From NCBI GenBank assembly GCA_964036045.1, contig OZ038378.1, forward strand, positions 169,136,106-169,200,105: a stretch of DNA of 64,000 bases, in the 5' to 3' direction. Numbering within the stretch: position 1 is the stretch's first letter; each line of letters starts with the position of its first letter. The stretch comes from Eutreptiella sp. 'Long Island Sound 2002'. Lineage: Eukaryota; Euglenozoa; Euglenophyceae; Eutreptiales; Eutreptiaceae. The translations under genes were made by a program, and so were the position numbers. The notes below the pieces were generated by a model. The model was not told the DNA's origin and did not search any database. It saw nothing but the letters and a program-made list of their open reading frames with translations. Positions 429 to 53,561 of the stretch are shown here, piece by piece.

Positions 429-429
429 C

Positions 430-11597: not shown

Positions 11598-11644
11598 AAC
11601 AGAACGGAAGACTGAGCTCCCGTGAACTGAACCCTTTATAAGAA

Positions 11645-14586: not shown

Positions 14587-14713
14587 CTAACTTGTCGTTA
14601 CGTGGCACAAATCTTTGGGTGAAACCCTTACCTTTGCCTTTGCCTCCTTTGCCAGATCTCCGTGGATCAAAACGACCTCGTGTTGAAAACGAACGGAAAG
14701 AACTACGATGCGA

Positions 14714-15553: not shown

Positions 15554-15653
15554 TTTGTTAAAATTTATATCCTTAAAACATTTTGGATTGCATCAGAAAT
15601 CAAAGCTCTGGGTACAGCAAATCACTAGTTGAACAACTCAGTGAGCGCGTGAC

Positions 15654-18771: not shown

Positions 18772-18780
18772 GGTAGCAGA
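18771..18780 (+). other. Primer binding site of element B
   Basis: TGGTAGCAGA, the complement of the initiator-Met tRNA 3' end, overlaps the last T of the LTR. Confidence 0.82.
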
Positions 18781-20992: not shown

Positions 20993-21030
20993 GTGGACAC
21001 CGAGACGACGCACCGAGGTATTGCTACCTA

Positions 21031-26211: not shown

Positions 26212-28649
26212 GACTACTCCCTCCTGTTTCATAGCACCTGTGAAAACGGTGCATCTATGGTCCTAAGGCCCTGTTTCACTGAGCAGTGAGTTCACACTCA
26301 CTAGCCTGGGAGTTGTCGTGGATTTCCAAGGGAACTCCCAGGCTGGGGGACAGGTTTCACCAATCTAGGGAGGGAGAGAGATGAGCGGTGTGTAACTGGC
26401 GCGCGTGTGAGTGTCAACAGCCCCAACTGAAGTGTGTTGCCTAGGAGAGAAGTGAAACACTACTGCTAAGCAAGCCGATTCTTACGGGTGGTGAACACCT
26501 GGTTCCATTTTGGAACAGTCCAGCATCCACCACCGGAGGGGCAGGGTTGGTGTTCCCCAGGGAGGGGACCTCCCCCAGGAACTGGGTGGGCTGCAGGACG
26601 AGCAGAGTTTGCAAGGGCTGCCCAACCACGACCAGGGCTACCCCCTTGGCTGCAAACCTCCCCGCCTTGGGCACCCACCGTCAAAGACGCTAACGCCTGA
26701 TCCTACACCGCAAGACACCCTGATCCTACAACTTCCCACACACACGCCCACGCCAAGGTAAGTCAAGTTGTAGCTAACACCAAGCATCCCTGAACAAACA
26801 GTGAACGCTTTGGGTGCATCTCGCCTCCGGTCCGATGACACCCGTGCAAGTGTGGACACGGAACCGAAGCTCAACGTGATCCGTGCAGAGTGAGTGAATG
26901 GCGCGCAAAAGTGTGTTGTGTTGAGTATGTGTGTGCAGTGCTGTGCGTGGATGTGCGCTGCAGGGCGAGCATGTGTGTGAATCTACCTCAGGGTGTCTAC
27001 CTTGGGGCTACCCATAAGAAAAAGAGAGAGGGTCACACACGGGGAGACCAGGAAAAAACCGTCAGGGATCAGAATGGGAGTGGGAACAAGGGCCAGCGTA
27101 CGCTGACCAACGCGAACGCCCTTGCCCATTCCAATCCCCTGCCTTCCCAGTCTCCCGGACGCTGAACTTAACGCTCTACAAAGGAGTAGCCCTTTGCAGG
27201 AGCGCCCCTTGCTAACGCCTCCAACCCAGATCCCACTCTCCACTCCACACTCCTCCCACACTCGGAGAACTCAAACCGCGCAACTTGCAAGTCGGGAATC
27301 TCACCCCAGAGTTTCATTGGGCTTTTTGAGTTCCCACGGTCCTACACTCTCTAACACACGCTGCATGTGTGAGCGGCACGGTGAGACATATGAGTGTTTT
27401 AGGTGCCTGCGAATGAGCATATGCATGCACTGAACGATTCAACAGGCATTCCGCCACAAAACCAGACAGAGGACACTGACGCATATAGCGGCGCCTCCGC
27501 TGTGCATGCAAGCTGTCCTGCAGAGCGAGCAAGGAAGGTTCTCCCTACCTCCCGAACCTTGAATGTTTCCCTTATGAAGGTTTTACCCTCTATCCTACTT
27601 GGATTCGGAGTTTTTACGTGTGCACGACGCGGCGTACGCTGCTATTTTGCAGGCGTGACGGCCTGTTTCCCTCCTGAATCCTGCCTGAATGCCAGCCCAA
27701 GCCAGACCTTGCGAGGCACCAAGAGTGTGCAAAAGACGGCAAAGCAAGGTAAAAACACGCTACGCGTGTTGTGCAAGCTCTAACCAACACGTATGTTTCA
27801 TTTCTGTTGTGCTATGTGTGGCTGATGTTCAAACTCGCCTATTGAACGCACAGTGGTGAATTGATGCGCGCAAAACGTACAGTTACCCTATGGCTGTACT
27901 GTGCACCCTCCCCGCGCAAAAATGTTTCCCTGTCTGTAAGCCTGACTTTATAAAATCGCGTTTTTCGCTGCTCGTTGTTTTCCAAATTCTTTGTTTTACA
28001 AAACTGCGGTTTTTGCAGCTTCAGAAGCGCTTTTTTACAAAAGTTCAAAAGTTTTTGGACTTTGGAGGCTTCGCCCCCAGTCCCGCACGGCGGACGCGCG
28101 CAGTTACGGGAGTCGCCAGAACTCCCAGCGCTACACTTTGCGCTTTTCAGGTGTCCAAATACTTTTTCAAGTTTTCGTTCCTGGCGAGTGAGAAGCTCAG
28201 CTACGGTTCATTTTGGATTGCATTTCAAGCGTTATTCATTGCCGATTTCAAATTGATTTCAAAAATCGGTATCTGCATTTGTTATGTAAGGCTTCCCTAA
28301 GGATTCCTACGCCTTGTCCATGCTTTATATATCACTTTCAGCACAATCTTTCTGGAACTTCTGGTATTTGCATTTTTGGCTCCAAACTAATCACATATTG
28401 TGCTGTGGTAAGAGTGGTATAGTAAGAAAGGTAACTCACATGTATGCTTTCCGAAGTCATTCCACTCATTCTTTACTGTGGTACTGAGGTGCAGTGATCA
28501 TACTTGGTATTGAAGTAGTCCAGTTCTGGACTGAATAGTAAATGCTAAGAGATTTCACAGGGCTGCATATGATTATGGCCACAATATCATTTTTCAGCCT
28601 ATTTTTCTGAGTATTTACTCCTGAATTCCAGGGCTCCAGTCGGGGGGTG
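26212..28649 (+). other. Long 3' non-coding region of element B
   Basis: No coding region I can support in 2.4 kb between pol and the 3' LTR; the small frames are of chance size. The GGGGGG at 28642-28647 just before the LTR is the likely polypurine tract. A C/G-rich first half gives way to an AT-rich second half (from about 27900), with TATA-like and CAAAATTC-like runs. Function unknown; it could hold RNA packaging or regulatory signals. Confidence 0.5.
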
Positions 28650-29456
28650 AGTGAGATTGAGCCCCATGGAGTATATATTTTGATCTCAGAGTGTACTTTA
28701 TTTGAACTCAGAGCAGATTCAGATCAATCATCATCATTCATCATCGTCATCATTCATCATGCATCATGTGTCATGTGTCATGCATCATGTGTCATGACAT
28801 GCTGGCGCCCTAGCATGTGTTTTTCACATTCCAACCCAAAACTTCACTTTCGCTCAGAACTAACACAACCACAACCCCACTCTTATGGGTTCCTAAGAAG
28901 GTTATACTATTCATTTTTCATAACTCTTTGAATTTGGATGATCACATTTTTGACATCATGGATTGTCATGCATGTCATGCATGATCGACTCATTTTGTGA
29001 GTGATACCACACATACTACCTTCGAAGGAGTCTAAGGCCCCTAAGGGACCTTTATATACACTACAACCCTTTTCCATGGTTGTCCCTACTTCTACATGTA
29101 GTTTAATGCCTATTTGGCGGGTCCCAAGTATTTTTCATGTATTGGGGGATCCCAAGAATATACCTAGGCCTAAGCCAAACCCCAAACACAAGAGGAGAGA
29201 AGAGAGATAGATAGAGGAGAGGCGTCTGGCGGCGACACCAGGGAGCACGTGGTGCTTCCTAGGTAAGTCCTAACTAGGTGTATTTTACAACAAGAGGCAT
29301 ATTTGTATGGTGAGAGTGGAAGAGAGGTAAGGAGTGAACATGAGTGTAAATAATGATTGTGTTTCATAGTCCCTTTTTTGCTATGGACTAAGCTGGAAGA
29401 CCAAATACTATGAGCCCATTACTTTGCTGTTGTTGAGGAGGGTGCCAAATCTAACT
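28650..29456 (+). repeat. 3' LTR of element B
   Basis: About 807 bases and nearly identical to 17964-18771; differences include one short indel in the CATCATT microsatellite and a few substitutions. It is followed by the GAGAG duplication and the X gag sequence. Confidence 0.93.
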
Positions 29457-30355
29457 GAGAGGTGAGAATGTGTCGAATCACACCTCATTTCGTCGACCTC
29501 TTCGTCGTGTCGACCCCAGGCGCCCGACGGACCAGCGTGCTGACGCACATTCTGGCGTCGTTCCTCGGCGATGATGGCCATCTGCACAATCACGGCGGCC
29601 TGGTGGTCGAACTGGTCCATCAGCTCCACCCAGTCCTCTTGCTCCTGCAATTGGGCGTCAAATCGCAACCGGCCGCTGTCCCTGATGAACTGGCACGACG
29701 CCCTGAACCAGTCCCTCAGGCGGCCACGGTAGCTCGCCTCAGCCAGAAGCCAATTCTGGCGCTGCAGAAATTCTTGGTTCCAGATATCCTGGAATTGGTG
29801 TTCCCAGTAATCACCAGAAATCTCATTCATTCCAGTATTGGATGTCTCTCCTTCGCTGCTGCTGTCTTCCAGATCAGGCAAAGCGTGAGAGGAGGAACCA
29901 GATTCACTCGAGGAGGGAGATTCTCGACCGGGTTTAAGGTTGGGTGGGGTGTTCATGCAACACTCAGCACAAGTGTGAACACCAGGCCAATGTTTATGGC
30001 CACAGTAAGGGCACTCTGATGGTTGATCTTCGGTTCGCTGGGGAGATGCTACGAATGTAACCTCAGGGGGAACACGCAGTGACCCAGAACGAGTAATAGC
30101 CCCGCTAAAGTCCGACGATCTCAGAGTATCAGTGGAGATTCCAGAAGCAGAGTCATGATTTCCTCTGCTACCATGTAACCGCTGCATAGTGGTTGATCTT
30201 TGTTGTGACTGCGAAGCCTGTAGCCTTGATGCCCCAGGGGTCGTAACGCCCGACACTGCCCCTGATATCTCCGAACCCACATAACCCTCTTCGGACCCAT
30301 ATCCAGCCTCTGGGAGCGACATATGCGAAGCACTTGTAAGTCCAGTGAACTCCAT
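29457..30355 (-). pseudogene. gag: Gag of element X, 5' part (starts inside the LTR)
   Basis: Minus strand, ATG at 30355 in a strong initiation context (CCACCATGG). The first 60 codons lie in the LTR and the frame runs straight through the primer site (30173-30162). Further on is a C-P-Y-C...C-A-E-C zinc-ribbon-like cluster, a Ser-rich acidic stretch and an aromatic-rich helical region. It is cut by element B at 29457; the frame resumes correctly at 17963. Related to the N-terminal half of the Y Gag. Confidence 0.75.
30162..30173 (-). other. Primer binding site of element X
   Basis: On the minus strand TGGTAGCAGAGG, a 12-base perfect match to the initiator-Met tRNA 3' complement, begins one base after the LTR end (GTTACA). 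Confidence 0.82.
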
Positions 30356-34045: not shown

Positions 34046-34368
34046 GGGGGCGGCTCCGAAGAGGAGGACTTGGTTTTCTGGATCCTCGTGAAAATTGGGG
34101 ATCAAGTTTTTTCGAGCAGTGCTTGACACCGGTGCAACACTTTCCATAGTGGCCCGGCGCCTGCTAAAGACTTTCAAGAAAACTAAGACCGTGGCCATAA
34201 GAGTAGGGGATGGGCGTACCATCCATTCCTTGGGGGGGGTCGATGTGACTATATGCCTGGGCGACGAAACCGTGACCCAACACTGCAGAGTGCTGGACAC
34301 CGACGCCTTTGACATCGTCATTGGCACTGACTTTCTAAGAAGAAACCCCCAGGTTAAAATGCTGTCCT
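34046..34368 (+). pseudogene. pol: Start of A-2 pol (protease), cut by Ins1
   Basis: Identical or nearly so to A-1 2680-3005 except for one inserted T in a T-run near 34107, which breaks the readthrough frame before the DTGA motif. Ends at 34368 where foreign sequence begins. Confidence 0.82.
34293..34368. repeat. Left copy of the 75-base duplication flanking Ins1
   Basis: Pol sequence starting ctggacaccgacgc is present on both sides of Ins1 (again at 39163-39237). The two copies differ at about one base in ten; the left one is identical to A-1 and the right one is not. Confidence 0.7.
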
Positions 34369-34764
34369 GCAAAGAAAAACGCGTCGCGAGCAGCGCGTAA
34401 AACTCGAAAATTTTTCATAACTCGCCACGACCCCTCACGTCGCGCCCTGCCGCCTTTTTCTTCTTATTCTTCATGCACCTCCCTCCCCACCCTCGTGCCC
34501 ATCACTCCCCTTGCCCTGCAGCTCAGGCGGCGGCCCTGGGGGAACACGGTAAACCCTTAGCAATGGACACCAACACGCTCCACGACGCCACGCACAAGAA
34601 CGAGACCAGGAACATCAAGAACAACGGGTAACACGTAAGGCACAGCAGCGAACATGGTCTTGCTGCACGCGAGTGTGTTGGGTCGTGTATAATTTTATTT
34701 TATTTTCAAAAGCAAAAAAAAAAAAAAGAGTTTTGAAAGGCACGGAAAAACGGCAGGGGTTTTT

Positions 34765-36253
34765 AGCAAAAGAAAAGAGGACAAAAGAAACACCAGCAGC
34801 GCAGACAACCGCACAGCACAGCCAACCAGCACAGCACCGCAGGACAGCACGGCACCGCAGGACACGGCACAGAGCGCAGGACACCACAGGACAACGCACA
34901 GCACAGCAAGACACCACGACACACCAGAGCAGCACCACCACACCGCAGAACGCCCAGGGAGACACCACAACGCACAGGGACACGCCACAGCACGAGGCAC
35001 CAACAACAGCGCAGACCACACGGGCGCCGCACGACAGGCCGCAGGAGGGCAAAGCAAACACAAACAGCACCGCAAAACGACAGCAGAGCACGACAGCACA
35101 GCACCACACGACAGCACAGCGCCACAGCACACGACACAGGGAAGCAGGGCACCACAGCCAGCACAACAAGGCACCGCAGCGCACAGAGCGGAGAAGACAG
35201 GGAACGCACAGCGCGAGGAAAAGAGCACCACAGCACGCAGACACCACCACCGGGCCAAAAACAGCACAGCCAACCAACAGCACAACACAGCACAGCACGA
35301 CGGCCCACAGGAGGGCAAAGCAAGCCCCAACAGCACCGCAACACGACAGCAGAGCACAACAGCACAGCACCACGCGACAGCACAGCACCACAGAACACAA
35401 CACAGGAAAGCAGGGCACCACAGCAAACCACACCAACCACAGGGAAGCAGACCACGCGGCCAGACAGGGACACCGACACCGAAACACGCCACCAGCAGAC
35501 AACCACGGGCCACCAGACCCAGCACCGCACCACGGCACACCACAGGAAACAGCACAACACACAGCAGCGCACCACAGCACCAGGCGCCAGCAACAGCACG
35601 CACCACACGAACAGCACAACGCGAGCGCACCAGCACAGCGAAGCACAGCACCGCACAGAACGGAGAGCACAGGGAACACACAGCACAGCACCCCGAGACA
35701 CACACAGCACAAGGCAGAGCGGCGAACAACAGCACGCACCACCACGCCACGGCAAAACACACACAGCACAGAGCACACAGCGCGGGGGAACACCGCAAAA
35801 CACAGCGCCGCAGAGCACAGGGCCCCAGGGCGACGGGCAGCGCCAGAGGGCACGGCGCAACAAGCAGCGGCACCAAACGAGCGCAACACAGCACACGACA
35901 GCACAACACCGGGCGACACAACACGCAGCAGCGCGGCGCAGCACCGCACCCAGGGACGCACAGCACAACACGGCACACAGCACCGAGCGGCAGGAACGAA
36001 AACCGCGAGACACAAGGGGGGGGGGGGGGGCAGCAACCACGCGGGAGCAGCCAACAGCCAGGCGGAAAGCACGAAAGAGGGACAAGCGCACGGAGAGCCG
36101 AGAAGCGGCAGGCCAACAAAACAAACAACGCAAGCGCCGAGGCCCAGGGCACCCGGGGCCGGAAACCAGAGAAAGCCGGAGACAACGGGGGCGCACGGAG
36201 GAAGAAGAAGAGGGAAAAAACAAACAAAAACACAAAGGCCACAAGCAGGAGCG
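34765..36253 (+). repeat. Low-complexity tract with no T on the top strand (about 1,489 bases)
   Basis: I read every line: not one T between 34765 and 36253. The tract is an irregular mosaic of words such as GCACA, GCAGG, CCACA and GGGAAGCAG, not a clean tandem repeat. Long open frames on both strands here are a by-product, because every stop codon needs a T (or an A on the other strand). A run of G is at about 36016-36030. Confidence 0.9.
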
Positions 36254-36540
36254 CTGAAAACCGCCAGACACAAAGGTGGGGGGGGGCGGGGGAGCAACCA
36301 CCAAAGAGCAGCCAACGGCCAAGCGGGAGACACAAACGAGGCGCCAGCCAGGCAGCGGGAGGCCGAGAAAAACAACCAACGAGGAACGGCAACAGCAGCG
36401 AAAGAGAGAGGGGCAACCCCAGCCCTGAGGGAACCAAGCAAAGCAGAAAGACAAAGCGGCCAAAGGAAAAGGTGAGGCGCACCAGAACGCGCCCGGGAGG
36501 CCGGCCCGCCCGACCCGGCCAAGCAAAGCACGCACACCAC

Positions 36541-37985
36541 CGCCGCCAGCGGACCCCAGCCAGGAGTGGCGGGGACCGCCCACCACCACCGGCAGCGAAA
36601 CCCAGCCAGGAGTGGCGGGGAGTAGCACACAGGAACCTCCGCCAGGAGTGGCGAGGAACCCCAACAACACACCACACACCACACCACACACCACACACCA
36701 CCGCCGCCAGCGGACCCCAGCCAGGAGTGGCGGGGACCGCCCACCACCACCGGCAACGAAACCCAGCCAGGAGTGGCGGGGAGTAGCACACAGGGACCTC
36801 CGCCAGGAGTGGCGAGGGACCAACCACACCACACACCAACCACAACCCCAACAACACACAACCGCCACACACCACAAACCGACGCCGCCAGCGGACCCCA
36901 GCCAGGAGTGGCGGGGACCGCCCACCACCAGCGGCAGCGAAACCCAGCCAGGAGTGGCGGGGAGTAGCACACAGGAACCTCCGCCAGGAGTGGCGAGGGA
37001 CCAACCACACCACACACCAGCCACAACCCCACCAACACACCACCGCCACACACCACACACCACACACCACCGCCGCAAGCGGACCCCAGCCAGGAGTGGC
37101 GGGGACCGCCCACCACCGACGGCAGCGAAACCCAGCCAGGAGTGGCGGGGAGTAGCACACAGGAACCTCCGCCAGGAGTGGCGAGGGACCAACCACACCA
37201 CACACCAGAACAACCCCACCAACACACCACCGCCACACACCACACACCACACACCACACACCACACACCACACACCACCGCCGCAAGCGGACCCCAGCCA
37301 GGAGTGGCGGGGACCGCCCACCACCACCGGCAGCGAAACCCAGCCAGGAGTGGCGGAGAGTAGCACACAGGAACCTCCGCCAGGAGTGGCGAGGGACCAA
37401 CCACACCACACACCAGAACAACCCCACCAACACACCACCGCCACACACCACACACCACACACCACACACCACACACCACACACCACCGCCGCAAGCGGAC
37501 CCCAGCCAGGAGTGGCGGGGACCGCCCACCACCACCGGCAGCGAAACCCAGCCAGGAGTGGCGGAGAGTAGCACACAGGAACCTCCGCCAGGAGTGGCGA
37601 GGGACCAACCACACCACACACCAGCCACAACCCCACCAACACACCACCGCCACACACCACACACCACAGCCGCAAGCAGACCCCAGCCAGGAGTGGCGGG
37701 GACCGCCCACCACCAGCGGCAGCGAAACCCAGCCAGGAGTGGCGGGGAGTAGCACACAGGAACCTCCGCCAGGAGTGGCGAGGGACCAACCACAACACAC
37801 ACCAGCCACAACCCCACCAACACACCACCGCCACACACCACCGCCGCCGGCAGACCCCAGCCAGGAGTGGCGGGGACCGCCCACCACCACCGGCAGCCAA
37901 ACCCAGCCAGGAGTGGCGGGGAGTAGCACACAGGAACCTCCGCCAGGAGTGGCGAGGGACCAACCACACCACACACCAGCCACAG
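36541..37985 (+). repeat. Minisatellite, eight units of about 160-208 bases
   Basis: Units begin near 36558, 36719, 36900, 37088, 37296, 37504, 37685 and 37859. Each contains the word CCAGGAGTGGCGRGG three times, then a CACACCA-type microsatellite of variable length that explains the differing unit sizes. On the minus strand it translates to repeated P-A-T-P-G-W and R-H-S-W peptides, which I regard as non-coding. Confidence 0.88.
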
Positions 37986-39144
37986 AGCAAGCGCCAGCCG
38001 AGGAAAGGCAAAGGGAGGAACAGCCAGGCGCCCCCCCCCCCAAAAAAAAAAAGAGGGGGGGGGGCGCGCAAAAACAGCCCACAGCCACCAAACCGCCGCC
38101 AACAACACAGAAGGGGGCCAAACCCCCCACCCAGAGGGCACCGAAGACAGGACCCCCAAACAGGTACAGGGGGACGACCCAGCCAAAACCGGCAACACCA
38201 AGCCAGGAACAGCGGCCCAGCGGGAAAAGGAGCACCGAAACAAGGAGAAAAAAAAAAAAAAAGCCAGCAGCCCAGCCCGAAAGAAAGGAGACGGGGGGAG
38301 AGACCACAAGGCCCGGGACAGGGACACCCAGCAACCGGAAAAAAAAAAAAACAAAAAAGCGCAAAAAACACAACCCGACAACCCAGCCAAGAAGGGCGGG
38401 GCACAGCCGAGACCCGGGCCCAGCACGCACGCCCACACCGCACACCGAAACCGGAAACGGCGGGGGGCAAGGGGAACGCGCACGAAACCACACAGGTCCC
38501 GAAAGCAGGCCGACACCAAAGCCCAACCACGAACACCACAAACAGCCGGCAAAAGAGGGACAACACCACAAACCGAGCCCAAACACACCCACCCAAGACC
38601 CCAGCCACAACGGGCAGGGGTAAACAAAACCCACCACCCAACGCAACCCGGACCCAACCACAAACGCAAGCCAACAGTAGGGAACCCAGTGCCCACAGCC
38701 CGGGCACTGAGGCAGCCCGTGCCATGCAGGTGACCCGGCCAAACGAGATCCGGAGCCCGGGGGTAAGGCTGCATCCTAAGGCCTGCGCTGCTTTGGGACT
38801 CGAGGCGGAGCGTGCGACACCCAAGCGCCTCGGAACCCTAGTACCAAGAACATGCATGCATGCCTTGGGAACGGAATACGCCAGGAAGTCCGGTGAACCC
38901 CTAGGGTTCCGCCCAAAGGAGGGGACGTGCGCAAGCACGGGGGCCCACCCTCCTGGCGAGACAAGCACGTCACGCTGGCGGCGATCAGCCCTCCCGGTGT
39001 AGCCCGGGGCCGCTTTGTTGGGGGCCAAAAGTCAGGTCTAGCGGGATGTAAGCCGCCTCCCCTCTTCACGCGCGGAGCCTCTTCCTGTACGTCACAGGGG
39101 CGACGCCAGGGGGAACCATGGGGCGCCTCTCCACGACCGAGTGC

Positions 39145-39164
39145 ACCTACCTACCTACCTACCT
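39145..39164 (+). repeat. (ACCT)5 tail of Ins1
   Basis: Five ACCT units immediately before the repeated target sequence. Ins2 ends in four such units at 53546-53561. Confidence 0.85.
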
Positions 39165-42100
39165 GGACACCGACGCTTTTGACATCGTCATTGGTACAGA
39201 CTTCCTGCGAAGAAACCCCCAGGTAAAAATGCTGTCTCTCCAGCGCCCCTATTTTTTGCACTGCGACTTTGGCAGTGGGCTGTTCTCCTCACCTTTGGAG
39301 CATCAGGACGAAAAGAGTCTGGACTGCGCTACGCATCCAAGACTAACTATCGTACTGAAAACTACCAATTTGCCCGTCACGTTCTTGAAAATGGACTGGC
39401 GGCCCTTCAGGTAAACCTGGATGAGATCCAGGTGGAATTGTTTGCGAGCCAACAACAGCACATCATGCAGTTGTACTGCTCGAAACAATTGAACAATGCT
39501 TTCCGTTTCTTCTGGAAAGCAATGGGCCTAGCGTATGCTAACCCTCCCTTCTCCCTGCTCGCGAAGGTTCTAACCAAAATCGCTTATGAGGGAGGAAGGG
39601 TTGTCATGTGCACCCCTGACTGGGGCTGCTCTGGTGAACATGCTTACTGGCGCCGTATGCTAGATCGAATGACTGTGGGAAGAGTGCAACTCCCCGACGG
39701 CCCCATCTATGTGCCTGAGGACTCAGACACAGCTATGCAGGCCCCTGAGTGGGCCAGTTTCCTGTCCATCGTCCATGGATCTCTCAATCCTGTACCCCTG
39801 TGTGACATAGACCAGGTGCTACTGAAAGAGGTCATGGCCGAAAATCGTGGCCTGACCCTTTCTGATCTCAAAAATCGATCTCCTGAGCACCTATCTGCCA
39901 CACTTACAGGGTGTGAGTCTCCCGATGGCTATCTGGAACCTGCAGCTGTAAAAGAGGATGCTGACGACCAGCTGTCTGAGATCGCCAGCACTATCCCTCC
40001 TGTTGATCCCAGCTGTGTTGACCTAAAACACAGTGCCTTCCTAGCCCAGCTGTTGCTAGAGGAGGTGGATCTAGAGTCAACCTCTGAGCCCGCTCCCCCT
40101 GTTGGGAAACCAGTGCTACACATGCAGCCTATGCACACAGGTGAACCCGTGGCCCGGAGTGCTGATGCTCCGGAGCGACCTGCTTCTAATCACATGCCAT
40201 TGTCTGAGCATGACACTCAGGAACTCCGGCGGCTGTTGTACCTGAAGGCGGAAGGTATTGAGCGCCAAGAGCGGCTGCAATACCTCAGACAGACCCCGAA
40301 ATCCTCCATCTGGTCTGAGGAGGACGATGATTCCTATACGCTGCCTGATCCTGAGATACCGCTAATGTATTCTCTGCACTATGGGCAGCAATGTCCCCCT
40401 GAGTGGGACGATGGTTCTGTGCCTGCCGAAACTGCTGATCGGCAGAAAAAGAAAGAACATGGAAAGAGCAACCTCCATGCTGAGGAGGATTTCCTGCAGA
40501 AACTCGAGAGTTGTAACCTTGACCCCCGACTGAAGAAACTGCTGATATCCTATGAGGAGGTGTTCGGCGCCTTGCCGCCCCCCCTCTCTTGTAAAAAACT
40601 GGTCCAGATGGACCTGAAACTGAAACTTGAATTTGAAAAGACGCGAGTGAGGCGTCGTTCCTATCCTGCTCCACAGGAACAGGTTGAAGATATCGAGCGC
40701 CAGATCCAGGAATGTACAGATGCTGGCCTCGTTGAAGAATATAAGAAGGGAGACTACCCCCATCACTGCAGTCCCTGTTTCCTGGTTGCCAAACCAGGGT
40801 CGACTGCCCTACGACTGGTTGTAGACTATGGTGAGGTCAACAAGAAAACCCAGAACCACTCAGGGAGTATTCCTAACATAGAAAATACCCTGGAGCGTAT
40901 TGCCAAATGCCGGTACAAGACCAAAATGGACAAACGCTCTGGTTTCTGGCAGGTGGACCTAACCGCCACAGCTCAGGAGCTGCTGGCTTTTATAACCCCT
41001 AAGGGCCGTGTCTTTAAGTGGAGGGTTATGCCTTTTGGGGTGGCTAATGCCCCAGCGCTCTTCCAGGAGCTAATGAACAAAATTTTGTACATACTGAGGC
41101 GCAGGCCTCTAGTACAAGAGTTGATTTCTTGGGGTGCAGAAATGGAGGCTCCCATCGACGACGTGAGTTTGGGTACTAATACCCAAGAGGACCATGTCCT
41201 TCTCCTCCGTGAATGTTTCATTGTTTGTCAAGGAAACCATCTCCGAATCAAACTCGAAAAATGTGAGTTTATGAAAGAGGAGATGGAATATTTGGGTTTC
41301 GACGTGGGGTATGGTTGTTGGAAACCAGCCGCGTCTAAGATGCAGCCCCTACAGGACATGCAGATTCGCGATGACCCTAAGAAGGGTCTACACGACGTGA
41401 GGAGTTTTGTGGGCGCCTGTAATTTCTATCGGCGCCACATCCACAATTTTACTTACTCCTCTGCCCCCCTCACTGACCTAATCAAGAAAACTACTCCCTG
41501 GAGGTGGACCGCCAGAGAGGAAGAGAGTTTCCAGGAGTTGAAGAAGAAGATTGCCTCCTCCAACTGCCTGGGAGTACCCTCTCTAAGGGTGAGATAGTCC
41601 TGATCACTGATGCCAGTGATGTAGGGGGGGGTGGTACGATCTACCAATGGCAGGAGCTCAACCCCGCTGAACTAACCCACTGCCATTTTCGTACTACTGG
41701 ATTGAACCGTGATGGTTCGTTGAAACATGACTATCCTACCAGTGAGTGGCGACTGGTGCCACTGGGACACTGGAATTGGAAATGGAACCAAGCGCGTTCC
41801 AATTACAGCACCTATGACCAGGAACTCCTGGCCGGTATGTTGGTGCTTTCGTCAAAATTTCGACTCCTGGGATCTATCCCTATTGTCTGGCTGTGTGACC
41901 AGGAACCTGTGAAGTCTTTTCAGAAGGGCCCACCACCAGAGCAAGCAAACCTAAAGCGGTGGTGGACTTACCTGAGCTAGTTCAGGCTGACAGTGCATCA
42001 TATCCCCGGAATAAAGAATGAACTGTCTGACTATATATCGCGCAACAACTTCGATGCGCTTATAGGTGAGAGCTCTGAGGCGCTCGCCAGAGAGGCTTTC

Positions 42101-43849: not shown

Positions 43850-46654
43850 TGGTAGCAGAGCAGCCTTCAGCCTCGAGGTTATAGGTATGGAGTACGAGTC
43901 CGACCAACCGGACAGTGATGACGAGAGCATCTGTGATCTAGATGATCCAGATGGCTCACAGGACGGCGTAGAATGTTGCATAGTTGCGACATTCTCCGAA
44001 GAGTTAGGGATTCCTTGCCAGAATCCTGACTGCCCCAGGTACATACCCATTCCTCACCCCAGCTCAGTCCCCGATCCCAGTCGAGAAGCCGGGCCCCCAA
44101 CCGGCCCTTCACCGGGCGCTGGTCCCAGCGGAGTGTACGGCTCCTTGGGTGAAGGATCATCGAGTCAGGAGGACGACATTTGTCTCCCATCCAAGGAAAG
44201 CATGCAGGTACATCAAGATCCGCCGATCGCAAGTGGTCCAGGAGAGATGCCCACCAGAATGACACCTACGCCTGCGGAAATCGACCTGCTGCTCCAGAAC
44301 ATCATCAAGCAGGCCGTCTCCGCCAAGTTGGACACTCAAATCCAGGAGTCCCAGGAACGCTTGAGGATCAAACTCCAGAGGATCAAAAGCCTACAGCGAC
44401 TGGATTTGTATGATCAATGGTGCCTGCAAATTCACCATTGCTGCTGCAGGTTTCACCGAGAACATCCGCCGGTGCCAGTCAAGTCCACCGCCAAGACGAT
44501 GGAGGTCCATGTGGTGTCGCTGGAGTCGGCGTAGGAACATTCCTTTCTCAAGGTGGCGCAGGAAGAATCTCAAGAACTGCCTGCCGCGAACACCATCGAG
44601 AGTTGGCTGAACGAGCAAGAAGACGTGGTAAGGAAGCCAGAATCAATTGGATCGCGGTCCGAAACTGCCTCTCATGTGTCCTGTGCCCACCACTGCTCGT
44701 GTCGGAAAGAAATCGCCACCCTAGCTGCTGAGAATCAGGCGATTAAATTTAATCAGGAAAAACTCTTCCACTTTTTTTCGATGGGAAGATCTTTCGCTCA
44801 CCCCTCCTCTCATTTGCCAGATCCACCAGTCGGATCTACCTGTTCGGTAGCCGATGAAGCGACTGAAGTTTTTTCACTCGCGCCCACCACAGATTCCAGA
44901 GCGGAAGAACAAAACAAAAAACCCTGAAGAACTAAAAGAAAGAGTTTTTGAGAGTAAAAATCCTCAGCGTGTTTCAGAAGCGAGGACCAAAAAGAAAACC
45001 GAAGTTTTGGCCGAGAAAAGATCCACTGATCCCATGATTGCGGCTCAGGTTTTGCTCGCCCAGAGTCTTCTGGGCGCCGCCGGCGTCTCAGGTGCTGCCC
45101 AGGTCAATCCCATCCTGGCGGGTGGTGGCGGCATTGAAGACATTATTAACCCTGTGAGGGCTAAACTGAGAGCCATTGCAAAACAACCAAAATACAATGG
45201 CAACCCTCGCCGGTGGGCTGTTTTTAAAAGAGAATTTTCTCTGTGGGTTGGGAAGAACAAGCTTCGAGACGACGAGAAGCTTGATGCTCTTCTCCAGTGT
45301 TTGGAGGGTCCCATTCGTGATACGTGGATTAAATCCTACACTGATAGGGCTGATGCCTCTAACCCACTCACCTACAGTGAATTGTTTGCTCTGCTTGAGG
45401 GACAAGGAAATAGGTTGCCTGAAGACCATTACCGAACCCTCCTCACCTCTTTCCCGAACAGTCCCAAACTCATTCTCCACGGGGTTCAGAATAAGCGACT
45501 CCGCTTTAGAAAATCTGGTGAACGAGGCTGAGAGTGCTGGGGAACATCTGTCAGATGGCGAATTAAAGGCCATCATCTTCCCGAAAATGCCTGCCGACAC
45601 GGCTGCATCGCTGAGGCAGGAGCAGTCCAACGAGAAGATGAAATCCTGGTGGACTGAAGTCACAGGATTCCCTAAGGGCTCAGGTCGTTTTCAGGTCGGA
45701 GATGCCCTTAAAAAGTGCTCGCCCACTAACTTTTCCAAGTGTAAGGAAAAGGACGGTGCTTGGAGATTGAAAATTGCGGAGAAGGAGGACAGAGATATTT
45801 TCAATGAAGTGTTGAACCGAGGCGTCTCCTTTGGAGGAACTCGGCTCGTGGCAAAGCCGTGGGTTTTCAGCTTCACGCCCACTGAACTGTCGGAGGAGTT
45901 GGAAACATTGGCGGATGCCAATCATCAGCAATTCCATGAAGGATTGAGCCGAACTCCCCCCTCTAAAGGTGGAAATCAGAAGAATGTAAATAACACGCAG
46001 TCGAAAGACTGTGCCATTTGTTTGTCCTTCGGTCACACCAACCGTGCCAAGTGGCATTCCATTGAGAATCATTGGTGGAATAAGACCGATGCGGAAAGAG
46101 TGGCACAAGAAGCCAGCAAGGATCCGCCCAAAGCCCCTGTAAAGAAGGTGGATGAAAATCGCCAATCGACGCCCAGCGGAAAAGGTAGAGGCAGTAAAGG
46201 CCAGCAGACTTCTGGAGGCAAGGGAAACCAGGGCCAATCCAGCCAAGGACGCTCTCCAGAAAATTTTAAAAATGGAAATGGTAAGTCCAATTCTGCCAAG
46301 GGTAATGGTGGAAAAGGCAATTTTTCCAAGGGAAAAGGCCAATCCAGTGGCCAATTCTCGGGACATTCCAAGGGAATGAGCGCTGGTAAGGGCAAGGAAA
46401 CCTCCCAGGGCACGAAAGGTGGACGAGGGAAAGGATCATCTGGTCAGCGGAACTCTCATTCAGGTCGTGGTGCATCAGTGCACCAAGTTGCTGGTTCCGA
46501 CGAGGATTATTATAATAATGTGACGACGGAGGACCAGGATGCCCCCGATGAAGAAGGGAATCTTGGCGAAGAAGGTCTGGGAGACCAGTGGGAGGACGAG
46601 GACGGTTCCTGGGAAACCCTGCAGCAGGAGTACGAGGGAGATCATCAAGAATAA
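43703..46654 (+). pseudogene. gag: Gag of element Y, with two stops and two frameshifts
   Basis: ATG at 43703 lies in the LTR. The frame crosses the primer site and runs to a TAG at 44532-44534, continues in the same frame to a TGA at 44925, moves to another frame for 44854-45531, then to a third for about 45490-46654. The coding order matches the X Gag: zinc-ribbon-like cysteines, a C-S-C coiled-coil region, a capsid-like segment (L-P-E-D-H-Y-R), a C-A-I-C...H...H zinc motif and a long Gly/Lys/Ser tail with an acidic end. Family clear, copy inactive. Introns instead of frameshifts are possible but I see no GT-AG pair that repairs both. Confidence 0.78.
43850..43860 (+). other. Primer binding site of element Y
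   Basis: TGGTAGCAGAG, an 11-base perfect initiator-Met tRNA primer site, located inside the open gag frame. Confidence 0.8.
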
Positions 46655-47047
46655 AGGCGCCAAGTTTGTGTGGCCACCCCACACACAATCAGGCGTTTTC
46701 CTGAATGTCTGATCGTGGACATTGGAGCGTTGTCTGTAGGACCACCGCCAGTTCAGGCGGATGGAGATAGGAATGTTGTGGAAATCGGTGTTCCCAACAA
46801 ATACCAAGCTCGTCAATTCATTCGTCGTCTGTGGGTTACTGACAAGAAGGGGAAGAAACACCTTGCTACGTGTCTTTGTGACAATGGAAGGGAAGTGAAT
46901 CTTCAGTCAGAAAGTCTTTTACCAGACGAATGTGTGGACACTTCGCCGCACCCCGTTAACCTGGAAGGTGTTTCAGGTCATGCTCTTCCAGGAGGGAATA
47001 CTGAAGCGGTACCCAGAATATATGGCCCATGGCCCGGAGGCCTGTGA
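46655..47047 (+). pseudogene. Protease-like start of Y pol, truncated
   Basis: In the same frame as the Gag end, separated by TAA at 46652-46654. A C-D-N-G-R-E-V-N motif (D-N-G-S in the second copy at about 54790) sits where a retroviral-type aspartic protease has D-T/S-G. RT, RNase H and integrase do not follow; the frame ends in a 41-base tandem repeat. The D-N-G variant may mean a dead protease or a different fold. Confidence 0.5.
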
Positions 47048-47102
47048 GCGGTCACACCCGTTATGGCCCATGGCCCGGAGGCCTGTGAGCCGTCACACCC
47101 GT
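47021..47102 (+). repeat. Two tandem 41-base units
   Basis: A unit beginning tatggcccatggcccggagg occurs twice in a row, and again as a pair at about 54929-55009 in the duplicated copy. Confidence 0.85.
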
Positions 47103-47225
47103 GCGGAAGCCGTTGACACCGGCTGTCAGCGGGATATCCCTGTTCTCTAACCCGCGAAATCTGGAATCCGATTTCTAACCTTTAAATCGATGTGGAATTA
47201 CCATAGTTTTACTGTCTTGGTCGAT

Positions 47226-47266
47226 TTGCGGTTAGAAATCGGTGAAATACCCGATTTCTACCGCAA
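47226..47266. other. Strong hairpin with 8-base loop
   Basis: GCGGTTAGAAATCGG pairs with CCGATTTCTACCGC around the loop tgaaatac, with one bulged T. A second copy of the left arm's complement lies just upstream (about 47169-47180). Conserved in the duplicate at about 55132-55172. Confidence 0.7.
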
Positions 47267-47636
47267 TTTCTAATTGTCGTGAAATCGCCGCAAGACGTCG
47301 CCCGTTCCTTGCTCTTCATTAGATGATTCTGTAGAATGATCTTTCTTGAAGTTAAGACTGAAACACTCTTCGAGTGATCCGCAATTTTTTCCTTGATAGA
47401 ACGCATCGCGTCCCAGATTTTTCCCAGAAAATCTGGGCGGCGGAAGGCGCTTTGAACCCCCAAGTGAAATAACAAAGGTTACGAGCATTCAAGCGCCCAA
47501 GGACGAATTAACGTGCCTCATAGGCACTGTGTATGAGGTTTTGCCCCCCACAGTCATAGGGTGAGGCCAAAGGATCCCAACTCCATAGGCCCAAAGGGTT
47601 ATTCATTTTGAGTGTTCTTCAAGAAGTGCGCTTTTT

Positions 47637-47661
47637 CACGTACTTGGCGTCCAAGTACGTG
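47637..47661. other. Perfect 11-bp inverted repeat with 3-base spacer
   Basis: CACGTACTTGG, CGT, CCAAGTACGTG. Unchanged in the duplicate at 55543-55567. Could be a protein-binding palindrome or a hairpin; role unknown. Confidence 0.78.
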
Positions 47662-49669
47662 TAGAAGTATGTTGAGTTGGCGTTTTCTCCCTCTTTGCTT
47701 GCCTCTACATCCGGGGCATATCACTTGTCTTCCCCGGATAGTACATATATGATCTCCATATATATATTGGCAATATATTTTGCGTGCATGCTAAAATTCG
47801 GCTTTCCGAAAGGAGGTCGATTTTCGACCAAAGCACTTGAATGCGTGTTAAGGGACCAAAGTTACTTTAGAATATAGGCATACTTTGATTCTAGCCCACT
47901 GGGTTGGGTGTAGAAGGCGAGGGTAGGGTTGTATGCCATATTTGGTGTCATATCACGTGCCCATTTGGCGGGTGCACCATTCCAGGACTAACCCGCCAAT
48001 GGACCTCATATCGCACGAAGCCCTTGATTGTACTCCCAACCAACACTGGCAAGCCTAACCTTTGTGAAGGGACGCTTGTGGAGCGCTCCCGAAGCGATGC
48101 GTTCCGAGCAACGTGTGTTTTTTGCAATATTCCATTTTTGCATGTGCCCACTTGTGAGGCAGCGCGCGCGGCCTTCCAAAGCGCCCCAAGTGGAGCACAT
48201 ATGTGGAATCTAAGGTCATTGGTGTTGAGTCATTGTGTTTAGAAGGATTGGTCGATTACTCAATCCAAGCCAAAGTTATTATAATATATTTGTGGAGTTT
48301 TCAGGGCACTTTTGCGTGTTTTTCCGCCAACATTGCCGTTTTTTGCCCGTCATGATGTCAAGTGGCGACAGTGTATCTCAACGTTGCGCTCAATTGACAT
48401 CATGACCCAAGTATTTTTTGAGGGTACATACTTCGGTGCCCAGCATATCTTGGACCCGGCGAATAACTCCTCTTGGGCTTGGCATACCGTGGCCGCCATG
48501 TTGGCAATTTGGGACGATCCCAAATCATGGGCTCACCTGGCTACCCTGCCATTCCCAAAACCGGACCCCGTCCCTCCCAACCCCTACCCCCTAATGCCCC
48601 CATGCTACAGCGACCCCCACCAGCTACATCCCCACCACGCCCCAGCACAACCAGGCCCCGCGAACCACCCACCCCACATAGCGCACATCACCGCACCACA
48701 CCATCACGTATTCCACCACCACCAGCCCCTGCCACCACACCCACCAACGCCGGGGTACCACACACAACCGGCACCCCCTCCACACCACCACCACGCGGTC
48801 CAGCACCACCCGCCGCCCCCGCTACACGGGCACACGACATACGAGCCAGGGTACACCCCCATGGACCCGCGAGGAGCCGCGCACGCACACCAGCAACACC
48901 AATGCCCAGTAGGAGCGCCCCACCACCACCAACAGCCCCCCAACCCACACCCCATACCAGCGAGCACCATCCACCAGCAGCCACCCATCACATACGGACC
49001 ACAGCCCCACCCGGGGGCTCATGCGGCCGCCTCCCACCCGCACCCCGGCACCACAACCAGTCAAGAACCGCAAAGGCCACACGACGCACACACACAACAC
49101 CCACACGACCCACAGGGACGCCCAGACCCCCAGCCAGCACAACACCCACCCCCGCCCCCCCCCACCCCACCACCACCAGCAGCCCCCCCATCCACACCCC
49201 ATACCAGCGAGCACCATCCACCAGCAGCCACCCATTACATACGGACCACAGCCCCACCCGGACGCTCATGCGGCCGCCTCCCACCCACACCCCGGCACCA
49301 CAACCAGTCAAGAACCGCAAGGGCCGCACGGCGTACACACGCAACACCCACAAGACCCACAGGGACGCCCAGACCCCCAGCCAGCACAACACCCACCCCC
49401 GCCCCCCCCACCACCAACAGCGCCACCCCCACACCACCCCCCCCCCGCCCCCCCCCCGAGACCAGGCCACGGACACAACACGCGGCAGCCAGCACCGGAC
49501 AATTGACGTCGATACCCCCGCCGATACACGCCACCGCGAATCCCCCCTCCCGCGACCGCCACAAGAGACCCCATCACCGGACCCCACGCGCGACAACGAC
49601 GACCACCCCCCCCAAACCCACACCACCCCCCCCATCACACCCCGCACCACCAGCCGCCGCACCGGCCGA

Positions 49670-50763
49670 AACCTACGCCCTACACAACCCCGCAGCGGTA
49701 CGGCAGCACCTCCGGGGCCTCGGGGAACAGGACGTCGTGCTGTACCTCCGCACCTCCGGCACCAGCACCCCCGTCCGGGCGGCCACCCTGGTCCAGGCGG
49801 CCACCCTGGGGGAAGGCGTCAGAGACTTCCTCTTCGACGCCTTCCTCCACGTCGCCCGACAAGAGCGCCCCCCACGCGCCACCCCAGACGGCGAGAGCCC
49901 GCCCCCCACGGGGAGCCGGATCTGGGTGCCCCCCATCGACTGGGGGCGACACCTGGTCCCACACCCCGTGCCGGGGCGGGTGGACACCAAGGGCCGCACC
50001 CGCTACCACGAGCCCGACATGGCCCACCCCCCACCCGACGGCACCCCCGACAGCACCAAAGAGTGGGAGCGGGAAACATGGGTAGCCCAGACGGCCTCCC
50101 TGAGCAACTTCCGGCACCACGTCCCGGGGGACATCCCCACCCCCGACAAGCAGCAGCCAGCCCCCTCCACGTACATGACCCTCATGTACAATCTGCACTA
50201 CACCCTCTCCACCACCAACTACCACGCACCCACAGACCACTGGGTGGCACAAGGCCCCGACTCCCTCCTCCCCGCCAACTACACCCCCCCCCCACACAAC
50301 CCAGGCCCCGACACGTACGCCAGGGGGGACGACCCGGATGACCCCCACATCTGGGGCACGTGGGAACCCAAATTCCTGGACACGCTGCTCTCCATCCGCA
50401 GCGGCTACCAGGGCCTTGGTAGGGCGATGTATTGCCTCGCCAAGTGGACCCAACGGACCTGGGGGATCCCCACGGACCGATGGGTGTGGGTGGTCACGCT
50501 GCGCCCCCAGCAGAAGGGAAGCCCCCCCAAACCGCAGGGGACCCACCCCCCCACGCCCCACCACCCTACAACTATGCCCGTACATGGTGGCAGCCCGCCT
50601 CATGACGCTGCTGTGGCCGGGCCCAGACACCCCCACCCAAGACTACCCCCACCTCACAGAGGAGGACATGCCCGGCATCCAGCGATGCTTCTTCCAGACC
50701 CTCGACTACCTCCAGCAAACACACCCGCACGTCCTGGAGCAGATATGGCCACCCCCCGGGTAA
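49670..50763 (+). CDS. Unrecognised protein-like frame in Ins2 (one frameshift)
   Basis: From about 49670 the C-rich frame acquires a normal mix of residues, including many Trp, Tyr, Asp and Glu, e.g. R-I-W-V-P-P-I-D-W-G and W-E-P-K-F-L-D-T-L-L. Near 50530-50580 the protein-like character shifts to the next frame (M-V-A-A-R-L-M, then D-Y-P-H-L-T-E-E-D-M) and ends at a TAA at 50761-50763. I do not recognise the family. It may be the relic of an element-encoded protein. The longer open frame from 48312 is chimeric: its first 83 codons come from the flanking duplication. Confidence 0.4.
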
Positions 50764-51645
50764 CCCACGTGCCCGCGCAGCCGAGACAACGCCGCCACGC
50801 CAGCACCAGCACGCACGGATCACCAGGCAAAACGCGCGCACACGCCCGGTGCCCGAACCTGCACCCTCGTTCTCGCTACTTACAGGACCCAGCATCATAC
50901 GCCCGCCCCCGAGGCCCAGGACCCTCCGCCGTCTCCCACAGCCCTCTCCTGCGCCTCCGACTCCACAACCTCCACCACCACGACCACCTCATCCACCACC
51001 ACCACCACGTCCTCATCCAGCACTCCACCCCCCAGGCCGCGGGGGACACCTCCCAAACGGGCCTCCAAACCCGCCCCCACCGCGAGCAGCCCCGCCGCCG
51101 CCAAGGCCCACGCCCCCACGAAGCCCACACCCACGACCCGGCCGAAATCCAAGACCGCCGCCAAACAGCCACCCAAGCCCGCAGCCAAGCCCAAACCCAA
51201 GTCCAAACCCGGCGCCACGACGGCAGCGCGAGCCCGGCCCCCCGAGGACGTCCTCTATGACATCCGGCCCCAGCCGTCCCAGGCCCGAAGGCAGCAGCGC
51301 CCAGCGCGGCGCCCCCCCACCGTCACCGACGCCACCGCCACCACCTTCATGGCGGAGCGCGCCGCGGCCGAAGCGCGACGCACCTCGTCCCGCCACCTCT
51401 GAAAGCCCGCACCCCAGGCCCACGGACCGCTCACGACCAAGCCAGAACGACGCCAGGGTCCGCCAGCAGCGTCCCCGCCCCCCTACCAACCCTCGATGAC
51501 AGCCCACATACAACGCATGCCCCACTACCGCCGCCGCCGCGAGTCCCCGACCAACCCCGAGGCGGAGACCGTACGCGCACACCCGCGGGTCCACATCCGC
51601 GTGCGCCCCCACTCCCCACGCACCCCCACGGAACAGGACTAAGAG

Positions 51646-52194
51646 GAATCCCCCAGGCCCGCCACCGCCACAGGTCCCCACGACCCCGTCACACCCACCC
51701 ACGCCCACTGCTCAACCCAAGACCGCAGGCCCGCCCAGGAACAGTGGTGGCAGCGCTGGACCCACACGCAGCTCTGGGAGCTGCGAAAGTGGGCCCGGGG
51801 AGAGCCCTCCCTCGAGGGCCTGGTCCATCAACCCCGCAAGGGGTCGGTGGAAAACTGCCGCCTCCGGCCGGCGGGGGGCTGGATGCCGCAGGCCGCATGG
51901 GAACCCATGCTGGCCGATGCGCTCCGCCCCCTGGGAGTCCACCCCCGCAACCTCCCCGCGCCCCAGGACCACCCGTATGTCCTCAGGCGCCTGCGGGAGA
52001 CCCTCCAGGAAACGCAGCGAGACGGCATCCGCCTGTGGGACATCACGCAAAGCCCAGCCCCGCACAAACACACCCCCTCACCACCCCACAAGCGTCGGCG
52101 CACCGACAGCGGCGACACCCACAGCACCCCAGGAGCCCTGCGCGCCACACAACACGACGCGCCTGACCCCCCGGCCAGCGGCGCCGCCATCTAA
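51646..52194 (+). CDS. Second unrecognised protein-like frame in Ins2
   Basis: Open from just after a TAA at 51640-51642, with a Trp-rich start (Q-E-Q-W-W-Q-R-W) and a helical, basic middle (L-R-R-L-R-E-T-L-Q-E-T-Q), ending in TAA at 52192. First ATG is late (about 51883; a GTG is at 51847), so the true start is unclear. No family recognised. Confidence 0.35.
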   Translation, partial: ESPRPATATGPHDPVTPTHAHCSTQDRRPAQEQWWQRWTHTQLWELRKWARGEPSLEGLVHQPRKGSVENCRLRPAGGWMPQAAWEPMLADALRPLGVHPRNLPAPQDHPYVLRRLRETLQETQRDGIRLWDITQSPAPHKHTPSPPHKRRRTDSGDTHSTPGALRATQHDAPDPPASGAAI

Positions 52195-52811
52195 CCCCTT
52201 TACCCAGCAAACCACCACCACGGGGCGCCACGCCAGGCCCCGCCCAGAAGTTACCAAACGAACCGGACGCCGAAGGAAGCCAACGCACACGACAACGAGC
52301 GCCACTACGCCCAAAGGCACCGAACCCAGGCTCGCTACCGTCGCAACCGCCTAACCGAGCCAGAACCCAAGCACAAATCAAACCCGAGCCACACCCCAAA
52401 ACCGCTAACCCTTGACTCCTGACCAAGCCCGCCGAGGGAACACCGTAACCACAACCCACACCCACAGCCCACACAGACGCCTAACCAGCCAGCGCCAGAA
52501 GCAAAGAGACACCTCACCAAACCCACCCTGACCCAAGCCCGTGTACATCAGGACGCGCGAGCCGCACCCCTGGGGCGCGACCGCCGCCACAGCACCGACG
52601 ACACACGCCAGAGGACACAACGCTATTGCACCGCCGCACCAGCTGCCCATGCCTGTGCCTGCAGTGTACGCGCGCCCCTGTTTTTCTCTTTTTTGTTTTT
52701 TCTTTTTTTTTCCAAAAAAAAAAAAAACAAGTAAATAAAAAAAAACGAAAATTAGGGGGGGAGGAAGAGGGACACAACCACCCATGGCACACGCGCACCG
52801 CACACAGCACG

Positions 52812-52990
52812 CACACCGGTGAACAGGAGCCCAGTGGCCCAGGACACCGCACATGCAACACAACACACAGAGCGAGGACACCGGTGAACAGGAGCCAGCC
52901 GGCCCAGGACACCGCAGATGCACCACAGCAAACCGCGCGGGCACACCGGTGAACAGGAGCCCAGCGGCCCAGGACACTGCACACACGTAG
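52812..52990 (+). repeat. Three tandem units of about 65 bases
   Basis: Units starting ACACCGGTGAACAGGAGCC near 52812, 52878 and 52943, each followed by a GGCCCAGGACACYGCA word. Confidence 0.85.
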
Positions 52991-53545
52991 GGCGGACGAG
53001 GGACAGGAAAGAACCAATACCCCATGGATCGGACGCACTGGGGCGACCCAGCCGACCCACCGGGCCAGTGGCAGGAGCGGTACTCCAAGGCCACTGGTCC
53101 TAGCCCGGCCAGGCTGCATCGGGGACCATGGCAAACGTCACCCGGAGCCATGGAAGCAACCGGTGAATGGCGAGCCGGTACACAGTCCAGGAGGGGGTCA
53201 CCTGCCAAGCAGAGTGGCCCCGCAACTCAAGCCACAAGGGTGAGGCGGTCGTACCGTAGACTCGCGGGAGCAATACCCCTTGTGGTGAGAGATACTCCAC
53301 ACGGCTGGGCAGCCCCCCAGAGCTGCCGCCCAAAGGAGGGGGCATGTAGCCCTACCCATGGACACATGTGGGGACACCCTCCCACCTGGGACACATGGAC
53401 CGCGTGGCCGCGACAATGCCTTCCCAAGCACATGCGGGAGCGGCTCAAGAGGCACCTGACATAGGGCAGTGGGAGGGACAGGACGTCCTCTTGGTAAGAC
53501 CTTCTTCCTGCAATGTCAAAGGAGGCATCCCGAGCTCCCGAAGAT

Positions 53546-53561
53546 ACCTACCTACCTACCT
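53546..53561 (+). repeat. (ACCT)4 tail of Ins2
   Basis: Four ACCT units directly before the second copy of the target duplication. Confidence 0.85.

What the first reader, a model, noticed from the sequence alone, without database searches (positions are those of the whole stretch)
34765..36253. About 1,489 consecutive bases without a single T on one strand
The tract is irregular, not a clean repeat, yet contains only A, C and G on the top strand. Ordinary decay of a microsatellite would add T through C-to-T changes. So either the tract is very young, or the process that made its irregularity avoids T (no A in the other strand). Candidates are untemplated or slippage-driven synthesis from a T-less seed, complete A-to-G editing of an RNA followed by reverse transcription, or selection against T. 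Bounded by T at 34764 and 36254.
Basis: seen in the sequence. Interest (0 to 1): 0.88.

Follow-up and report, generated by a model that had tools for sequence, protein, structure and literature searches.

The report
Jumping element with a thymine-free core
The stretch without any T is the core of a recently copied mobile element found again at dozens of other places in this genome, and changes that have spread through its copies almost never bring in a T there, as if the element has to keep that part of its RNA free of uracil.

Summary
In detail: 34765-36254 is 1,490 b without T; the closing T is at 36255, not 36254. The tract is an inherited part of a young retroposon inserted at about 34369-39162 in an LTR retrotransposon. 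Forty other sampled copies carry it at 95.8-99.1% identity; 19 of 41 keep a T-free run of 1,000 b or more. Variable 5' truncation, an (ACCT)n tail and direct repeats of 13-348 b beside 11 of 20 copies point to target-primed reverse transcription. A-to-G editing and fresh untemplated synthesis are not supported. Differences strictly fixed between two subfamilies involve T in 0 of 36 cases in the tract but 67 of 125 in the adjoining 5' domain (a looser rule gives one T in the tract). Changes to T are 57 of 339 private and 7 of 98 shared; a second T-poor tract shows no clear private/shared difference. Best reading: selection keeps this RNA segment free of U, perhaps because U-free RNA folds weakly. 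A T-poor, strand-biased mutation process is the main rival. Host unidentified; function inferred.

The parts
34293..34368 (+). Left copy of the flanking direct repeat (target-site-duplication-like, 76 b) in the protease region of the host LTR retrotransposon
   Evidence: blastn and direct comparison, 90.5% to the right copy over 74 b
34369..39162 (+). Inserted non-autonomous retroposon, 5'-truncated copy (full-length copies of the same subfamily about 4.86 kb)
   Evidence: Junction comparison; 5' and 3' pieces found at many other sites; four fetched copies extend about 255 b further 5' to a common start
34369..34764 (+). Remaining part of the 5' domain, ordinary composition (80 T in 396), with an oligo-T/oligo-A stretch at about 34690-34764
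34765..36254 (+). T-free tract of this copy; in most aligned copies it continues to a T at 36277
34777..35676 (+). Diverged repeats of about 267 b built mainly of CAGCA-like words, inside the T-free tract
   Evidence: self-alignment at 71% identity with no T
36255..36532 (+). T-poor G- and A-rich segment
36533..37984 (+). Minisatellite, 8 units spaced 161-208 b, 5 T per unit; 24 variable columns, none involving T
37985..38620 (+). Second irregular T-poor tract (331 and 214 b T-free runs in or across it)
38621..39144 (+). Conserved 3' module; a 20-base motif at 38910-38929 (derived from the two insertions) recurs at 53327-53346
   Evidence: 98.2-98.9% identity in 6 other copies, 99% for the last 302 b in the 39 other scored hits
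39145..39164 (+). (ACCT)5 3' tail; the last CT is shared with the target
39163..39238 (+). Right copy of the flanking direct repeat
48566..53559 (+). Second insertion, a diverged relative: shares the 3' motif and the (ACCT)4 tail, and has an oligo-T/oligo-A stretch followed by a T-poor repeat tract before its 3' end

Best explanation
The T-free stretch is an inherited domain of a young, high-copy retroposon without recognised genes that moves by target-primed reverse transcription, presumably with a LINE's enzymes (inferred; no such LINE was found). T appears in it as scattered changes of single copies. Changes that separate the two subfamilies do not create T in this domain, although they do so freely in the adjoining 5' domain of the same element. 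The most likely cause is purifying selection, through success at copying, for a U-free sense RNA. Without U the RNA has no A-U or G-U pairs, so this GC-rich segment folds only weakly; that may help the reverse transcriptase run through it or keep it open for a protein. Shown: the tract, the family, the TPRT marks, the region-specific lack of T among spread changes, weak predicted folding. Inferred: that selection is the cause, and what it acts on.
For: Young copies: the 40 scored 3'-module hits are 99-100% identical, of 1,851 first-look candidates; the 40 scored 5'-piece hits 95-100%, of 1,850. Tract 95.8-99.1% identical to the window's in 40 other copies. TPRT: uninterrupted (ACCT)3 or longer at the 3' end of 19 of 20 fetched copies, L028 having one altered base; lengths from 375 b to over 4.8 kb; direct repeats of 13-348 b beside 11 of 20 copies, L016's lying 17 b off the computed start (no chance control was run). 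Strict subfamily I/II differences: T-involving 0 of 36 in the tract, 67 of 125 in the 5' domain, Fisher P 1.5e-10. Changes to T: private 57 of 339, in two copies 5 of 66, in three or more 2 of 32; private versus shared P 0.015. Minisatellite: 0 of 24 variable columns involve T. Second tract against the first part of the 3' module, 18 copies: shared changes involving T 6 of 79 against 5 of 11, P 0.003. Mean folding energy per nt in 200-nt pieces: tract sense -0.180, antisense -0.307, LTR-element pol -0.333. No period-3 signal.
Against: T is not absolutely barred: T is the majority state among 7 copies at 36277, 36473, 38165, 38497 and a column near 38061, and occurs 5 times per minisatellite unit; G>T at 35022 is in 4 subfamily-I copies and 2 of 3 subfamily-II copies. 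In the second tract private changes are T-poor as well (to T 10 of 97, shared 4 of 79, P 0.27), so there the private/shared contrast is not repeated. Private changes are strand-biased (G>A 0.0050 per G, C>T 0.0016 per C, P 1e-8), which selection alone does not predict for changes made after insertion. The fit of non-T on T differences per copy has a bootstrap slope interval of -0.35 to 3.26 and carries no weight. Folding is weak through composition, not order (mean z 0.23). Subfamily II rests on 2-3 copies, and the two regions were scored on different copy sets (5 and 2 copies for the 5' domain, 41 and 3 for the tract).
Confidence: 0.52

Rival explanations
1. Copying-stage or locus-specific mutation bias: errors are mainly A/G and A/C changes on the sense strand and rarely create T, so the active lineage stays T-free without selection.
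Against: The adjoining 5' domain is copied in the same RNA, yet its fixed subfamily differences include C/T 39 and A/G 27. The bias would have to be confined to the T-poor part.
Confidence: 0.28
2. Passive inheritance: the tract grew from T-free seeds such as (CAGCA)n, and its variation comes from slippage and conversion between T-free repeats, which can only bring in A, C or G.
For: CAGCA words and 267-b repeats; non-T variants at repeat-divergent sites match a partner repeat 102 times of 148, 85.5 expected.
Against: Variants are not clearly enriched where repeat units differ (173 at 580 sites against 161 at 618, P 0.16; I/II fixed differences 13 of 580 against 11 of 618, P 0.68). Clean isolated substitutions between repeat units are plain A/G (10) and A/C (2) changes.
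Confidence: 0.11
3. RNA editing or hypermutation (A-to-I on the antisense strand, read as T to C) wiped out T before reverse transcription.
For: It would be strand-specific.
Against: T->C, T->A, T->G or T-deletion matching of the rest of the window gave only short matches; reversed controls gave matches too, though for deletion, T->C and T->A the true orientation gave at least as many, and the best T->C match (80 b, E 1e-9) falls in a tandem-repeat array and on the minisatellite, not on the T-free tract (rows cut at 12). The rest of the genome was not searched this way. C is not inflated. Differences are not one-way.
Confidence: 0.03
4. Selection for open reading frames: a T-free strand has no stop codon in any of six frames.
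For: Long open frames on both strands.
Against: No three-base periodicity (chi-square 6.2, P 0.18); the diverged repeats differ by indels that are not multiples of three; no Pfam match in six frames of the T-poor block; T outside stop codons would be allowed.
Confidence: 0.03
5. Assembly or base-calling artefact.
For: None found.
Against: The tract recurs in 41 sampled copies on many contigs, with private changes and, where fetched, different flanks.
Confidence: 0.01

Closest known systems
VNTR-composite retrotransposons SVA and LAVA of hominoid primates (PMC4432496, abstract and section list seen)
   Same: Non-autonomous, non-LTR, composite, with a central GC-rich repeat domain; in LAVA that domain determines mobilisation efficiency (abstract).
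   Different: Different sequence; tail is (ACCT)n, not poly(A) (poly(A) tail recalled); the core is long, irregular and T-free on the sense strand; no Alu-like part was recognised.
LINE-1 and retroviral RNAs with an A-rich sense strand (PMC8770142, passages seen)
   Same: Strand-biased composition in retroelement RNA; [quoted passage not shown]
   Different: L1 ORF2 has A 41% and T 20% in the sense strand by that paper; here T is 0 over 1.5 kb and C is nearly as high as A.
Pan-edited cryptogenes of kinetoplastid mitochondria (recalled)
   Same: T-poor DNA on one strand.
   Different: Here a dispersed retroposon with repeats. Membership was not tested.

Membership tests
Non-LTR (TPRT) retroposon | Variable 5' truncation with a constant 3' end | tested here: met
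   20 fetched copies, lengths from 375 b to over 4.8 kb, common 3' end; copies were chosen by their 3' end
Non-LTR (TPRT) retroposon | Target-site duplications of variable length | tested here: met
   Direct repeats of 13-348 b beside 11 of 20 copies; 2 more have 9 b; L017 has 10 b not adjoining; 6 unresolved, of which two lie in repeats
Non-LTR (TPRT) retroposon | Simple-sequence or poly(A) 3' tail | tested here: met
   (ACCT)n tail
Non-LTR (TPRT) retroposon | Autonomous copies encode a reverse transcriptase | tested here: not met
   No Pfam match in six long frames of the window's T-poor block; sense frames of 150 aa or more in L017, L021, L033 read by eye only. Filed as non-autonomous
SINE with a tRNA or known small-RNA head | Head derived from tRNA, 5S, 7SL or snRNA | tested here: not met
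   No Rfam match at gathering score in 6 loci or the window; no tRNA in 8 loci
SVA/LAVA VNTR-composite | Alu-like 5' part | tested here: not met
   No Rfam match in 6 loci, four of them full-length or nearly so
Dinoflagellate genome element | Host carries the dinoflagellate spliced leader (21-mer recalled) | tested here: not met
   0 exact matches in the 2.28-Gb genome

The most novel reading that the evidence does not exclude
A retroposon has evolved a long RNA domain that must contain no uracil: each U lowers the chance that the RNA is copied, because U gives a host RNA-surveillance or modification system something to recognise, or lets the template fold and stop the reverse transcriptase. 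Base exclusion itself would be the selected trait, and related (ACCT)n-tailed families would share it.
Probability: 0.28. Interest if true: 0.86.

Novelty: new variant of a known kind. Interest (0 to 1): 0.73.

Why it matters
Selection is usually discussed for particular motifs. Here a whole base seems to be excluded from a long RNA domain over many rounds of copying, while the neighbouring domain of the same RNA is free to use it. If confirmed, it gives a natural, many-copy test of how base composition governs retroposition, RNA folding during reverse transcription, or recognition by host surveillance. My literature searches for thymine-free or U-poor tracts (listings only, cut at 25, 12 and 8 rows) showed no earlier description; the library holds open-licence papers only.

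Tried and rejected
Conversion search: I rewrote the rest of the window with T deleted or turned into C, A or G and compared it with the T-poor block; only short matches appeared (12 rows shown per case); reversed controls gave 5, 7, 12 and 4 matches. Coding: no period-3, no Pfam match. RNA fold of the 3' end: no stronger than shuffles (z 0.08 and 0.40). Known RNA families and tRNAs: none. Elsewhere: no match among phages; five viral contigs with the CAGCA pattern, all simple repeats as read by eye; the 3' motif and the LTR protein had no relative in viral contigs; L006, found by a minisatellite word, was not followed. The dinoflagellate idea was dropped; the Euglena gracilis assembly in PMC11252322 (passages seen: chromosomes 22.7-121.4 Mb) does not fit a 201-Mb contig. 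Copy number by pattern, copies of the second insertion and a host marker family were asked for but did not complete. One search was discarded because two minus-strand loci had not been turned; one search repeats it correctly. One search included truncated copies; one search repeats it without L016, L018 and L022.

Rows dropped: tract counts use 41 copies, namely 39 of the 40 best 5'-piece hits (the one on C208 was not fetched) plus L015 and L032; of the 20 copies fetched, eleven start downstream of the 5' piece and were not used for the tract, and three (L020, L025, L030) form subfamily II. Copies were picked as best matches to the 5' piece or 3' module, which favours young ones. Variants within 3 columns of a gap were left out. 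In one search, 5 of the 6 T differences are a misregistered TTTTT from the tract's left border.

Full report
Observation. The window holds one T-free run of 1,490 b at 34765-36254. T is 22.1% outside the block, so chance is about 10^-161, and the next longest T-free run outside the block is 168 b. The T-poor block extends to about 38.6 kb. It contains an irregular CAGCA-rich tract with a diverged 267-b repeat, a minisatellite of 8 units and a second irregular tract.

What it lies in. The block is part of an insertion that interrupts an LTR retrotransposon in its protease region. The element's pieces match another copy at 1-7062, whose long frame gives Pfam matches to reverse transcriptase, RNase H and aspartyl protease and a sub-threshold integrase match. 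Left and right flanks share 76 b. The insertion ends in (ACCT)n, and the target begins with CT, as at a second insertion ending at 53559 that shares the motif CGCCCAAAGGAGGGG and the tail.

A mobile family. The window lies in a genome of 2.28 Gb in 2,205 contigs. The 3' module has 1,851 first-look candidates and the 40 scored are 99-100% identical; the 5' piece has 1,850 candidates and the 40 scored are 95-100% (counts are lower bounds by the tool's note, and candidates are not confirmed copies). Twenty copies of 10 kb were fetched. They share the 3' end and tail but start at different points; L017, L021, L024 and L032 share a 5' end about 255 b beyond the window copy's start. Eleven of 20 carry a direct repeat of 13-348 b at the ends (no chance control). 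These are marks of target-primed reverse transcription. No Pfam match was found in six frames of the T-poor block and no tRNA or Rfam head in the loci examined, so the element is taken as non-autonomous and mobilised by something else (inferred).

The tract is inherited. In 40 other copies the tract is 95.8-99.1% identical to the window's. Ten of the 41 have no T in the columns scored, and 19 of 41 keep a T-free run of 1,000 b or more. So the irregularity was not made at this locus, and an assembly artefact is very unlikely.

How T behaves. Against the majority base, changes found in one copy go to T 57 times in 339, in two copies 5 in 66, and in three or more 2 in 32. Private against shared gives P 0.015; adding the subfamily differences gives P 0.0005. 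Between subfamilies I and II, strictly fixed differences are A/G 23, A/C 9, C/G 4 and none with T in the tract, while in the adjoining 5' domain 67 of 125 involve T, with C/T 39 and A/G 27 (P 1.5e-10). Restricted to isolated differences the counts are 0 of 16 and 10 of 23 (P 0.002). A looser count gives one real T difference, at 35022. Four pairs of repeated segments in the window give 56% T-involving clean substitutions. In the second tract (18 copies) shared changes involve T in 6 of 79 against 5 of 11 in the first part of the 3' module (P 0.003), but private changes there are T-poor too (to T 10 of 97 against 4 of 79 shared, P 0.27). Thus the lack of T is specific to the T-poor part of the element; whether T is mainly sifted out or mainly not made is only partly settled.

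Mechanism. A region-specific lack of T among spread changes fits selection on the sense RNA. Predicted folding in 200-nt pieces is weak for the sense tract (-0.180 kcal/mol per nt) against -0.307 for its antisense and -0.333 for coding sequence of the LTR element, though no weaker than shuffles, so composition alone accounts for it. The HUSH paper (PMC8770142, passages) mentions 'structurally poor' A-rich RNA as a support of cDNA synthesis; in LAVA the central repeat domain determines mobilisation efficiency (PMC4432496, abstract). By analogy a U-free, weakly folded core may aid copying. Against a simple story: a few T are majority states, one T variant has spread, and private changes are themselves strand-biased, G>A three times C>T per site, so a biased mutation process may contribute or even suffice. 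Conversion between T-free repeats is not shown to be the main source of variation.

Relatives. The second insertion at 48566-53559 has, before its 3' end, an oligo-T/oligo-A stretch and then a repeat tract with 4% T in the 200-b bin at 52801. Locus L034 holds a further (ACCT)3 end on its minus strand, with a stretch at 6% T upstream; whether that stretch belongs to the same element was not established. T-poverty may therefore be common in this group; only these cases were seen.

Limits. Subfamily II is 2-3 copies. No RNA data were available.

Noticed in passing
45654-48565 and 53560-56469: Direct repeat of 2.9 kb, 98.0% identical, bounding the second insertion. In the gag-like frame the differences are 11 non-synonymous and 1 synonymous, so it decayed without coding constraint: either a very long target duplication or a tandem duplication.
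   Followed up: partly
34293-34368 and 39163-39238: The two flank copies of the window insertion differ at positions that look synonymous by eye, and the right flank's first 150 b differ from the other LTR copy by 16 synonymous and 4 non-synonymous changes: the interrupted LTR element looks like a mosaic of two lineages.
   Followed up: partly
17963-18772 and 28649-29457: Direct repeats 99.1% identical flanking long frames at 19121-26211 that look gag- and pol-like by eye: perhaps a young second LTR retrotransposon.
   Followed up: no
11028-15992: Inverted repeats around a reverse-transcriptase frame on the minus strand (12553-14136, Pfam RVT_1); the frame at 11645-12250 looks by eye like a tyrosine recombinase, so perhaps a DIRS-type element.
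   Followed up: no
L034, minus strand about 1-2300: A further (ACCT)3-tailed end into which a copy of the T-free family seems to have inserted in opposite orientation; a stretch upstream has about 6% T.
   Followed up: partly
48600-52600: C-rich, T-poor frames in the second insertion with stretches that look protein-coding but match nothing in Pfam at E 1.
   Followed up: partly
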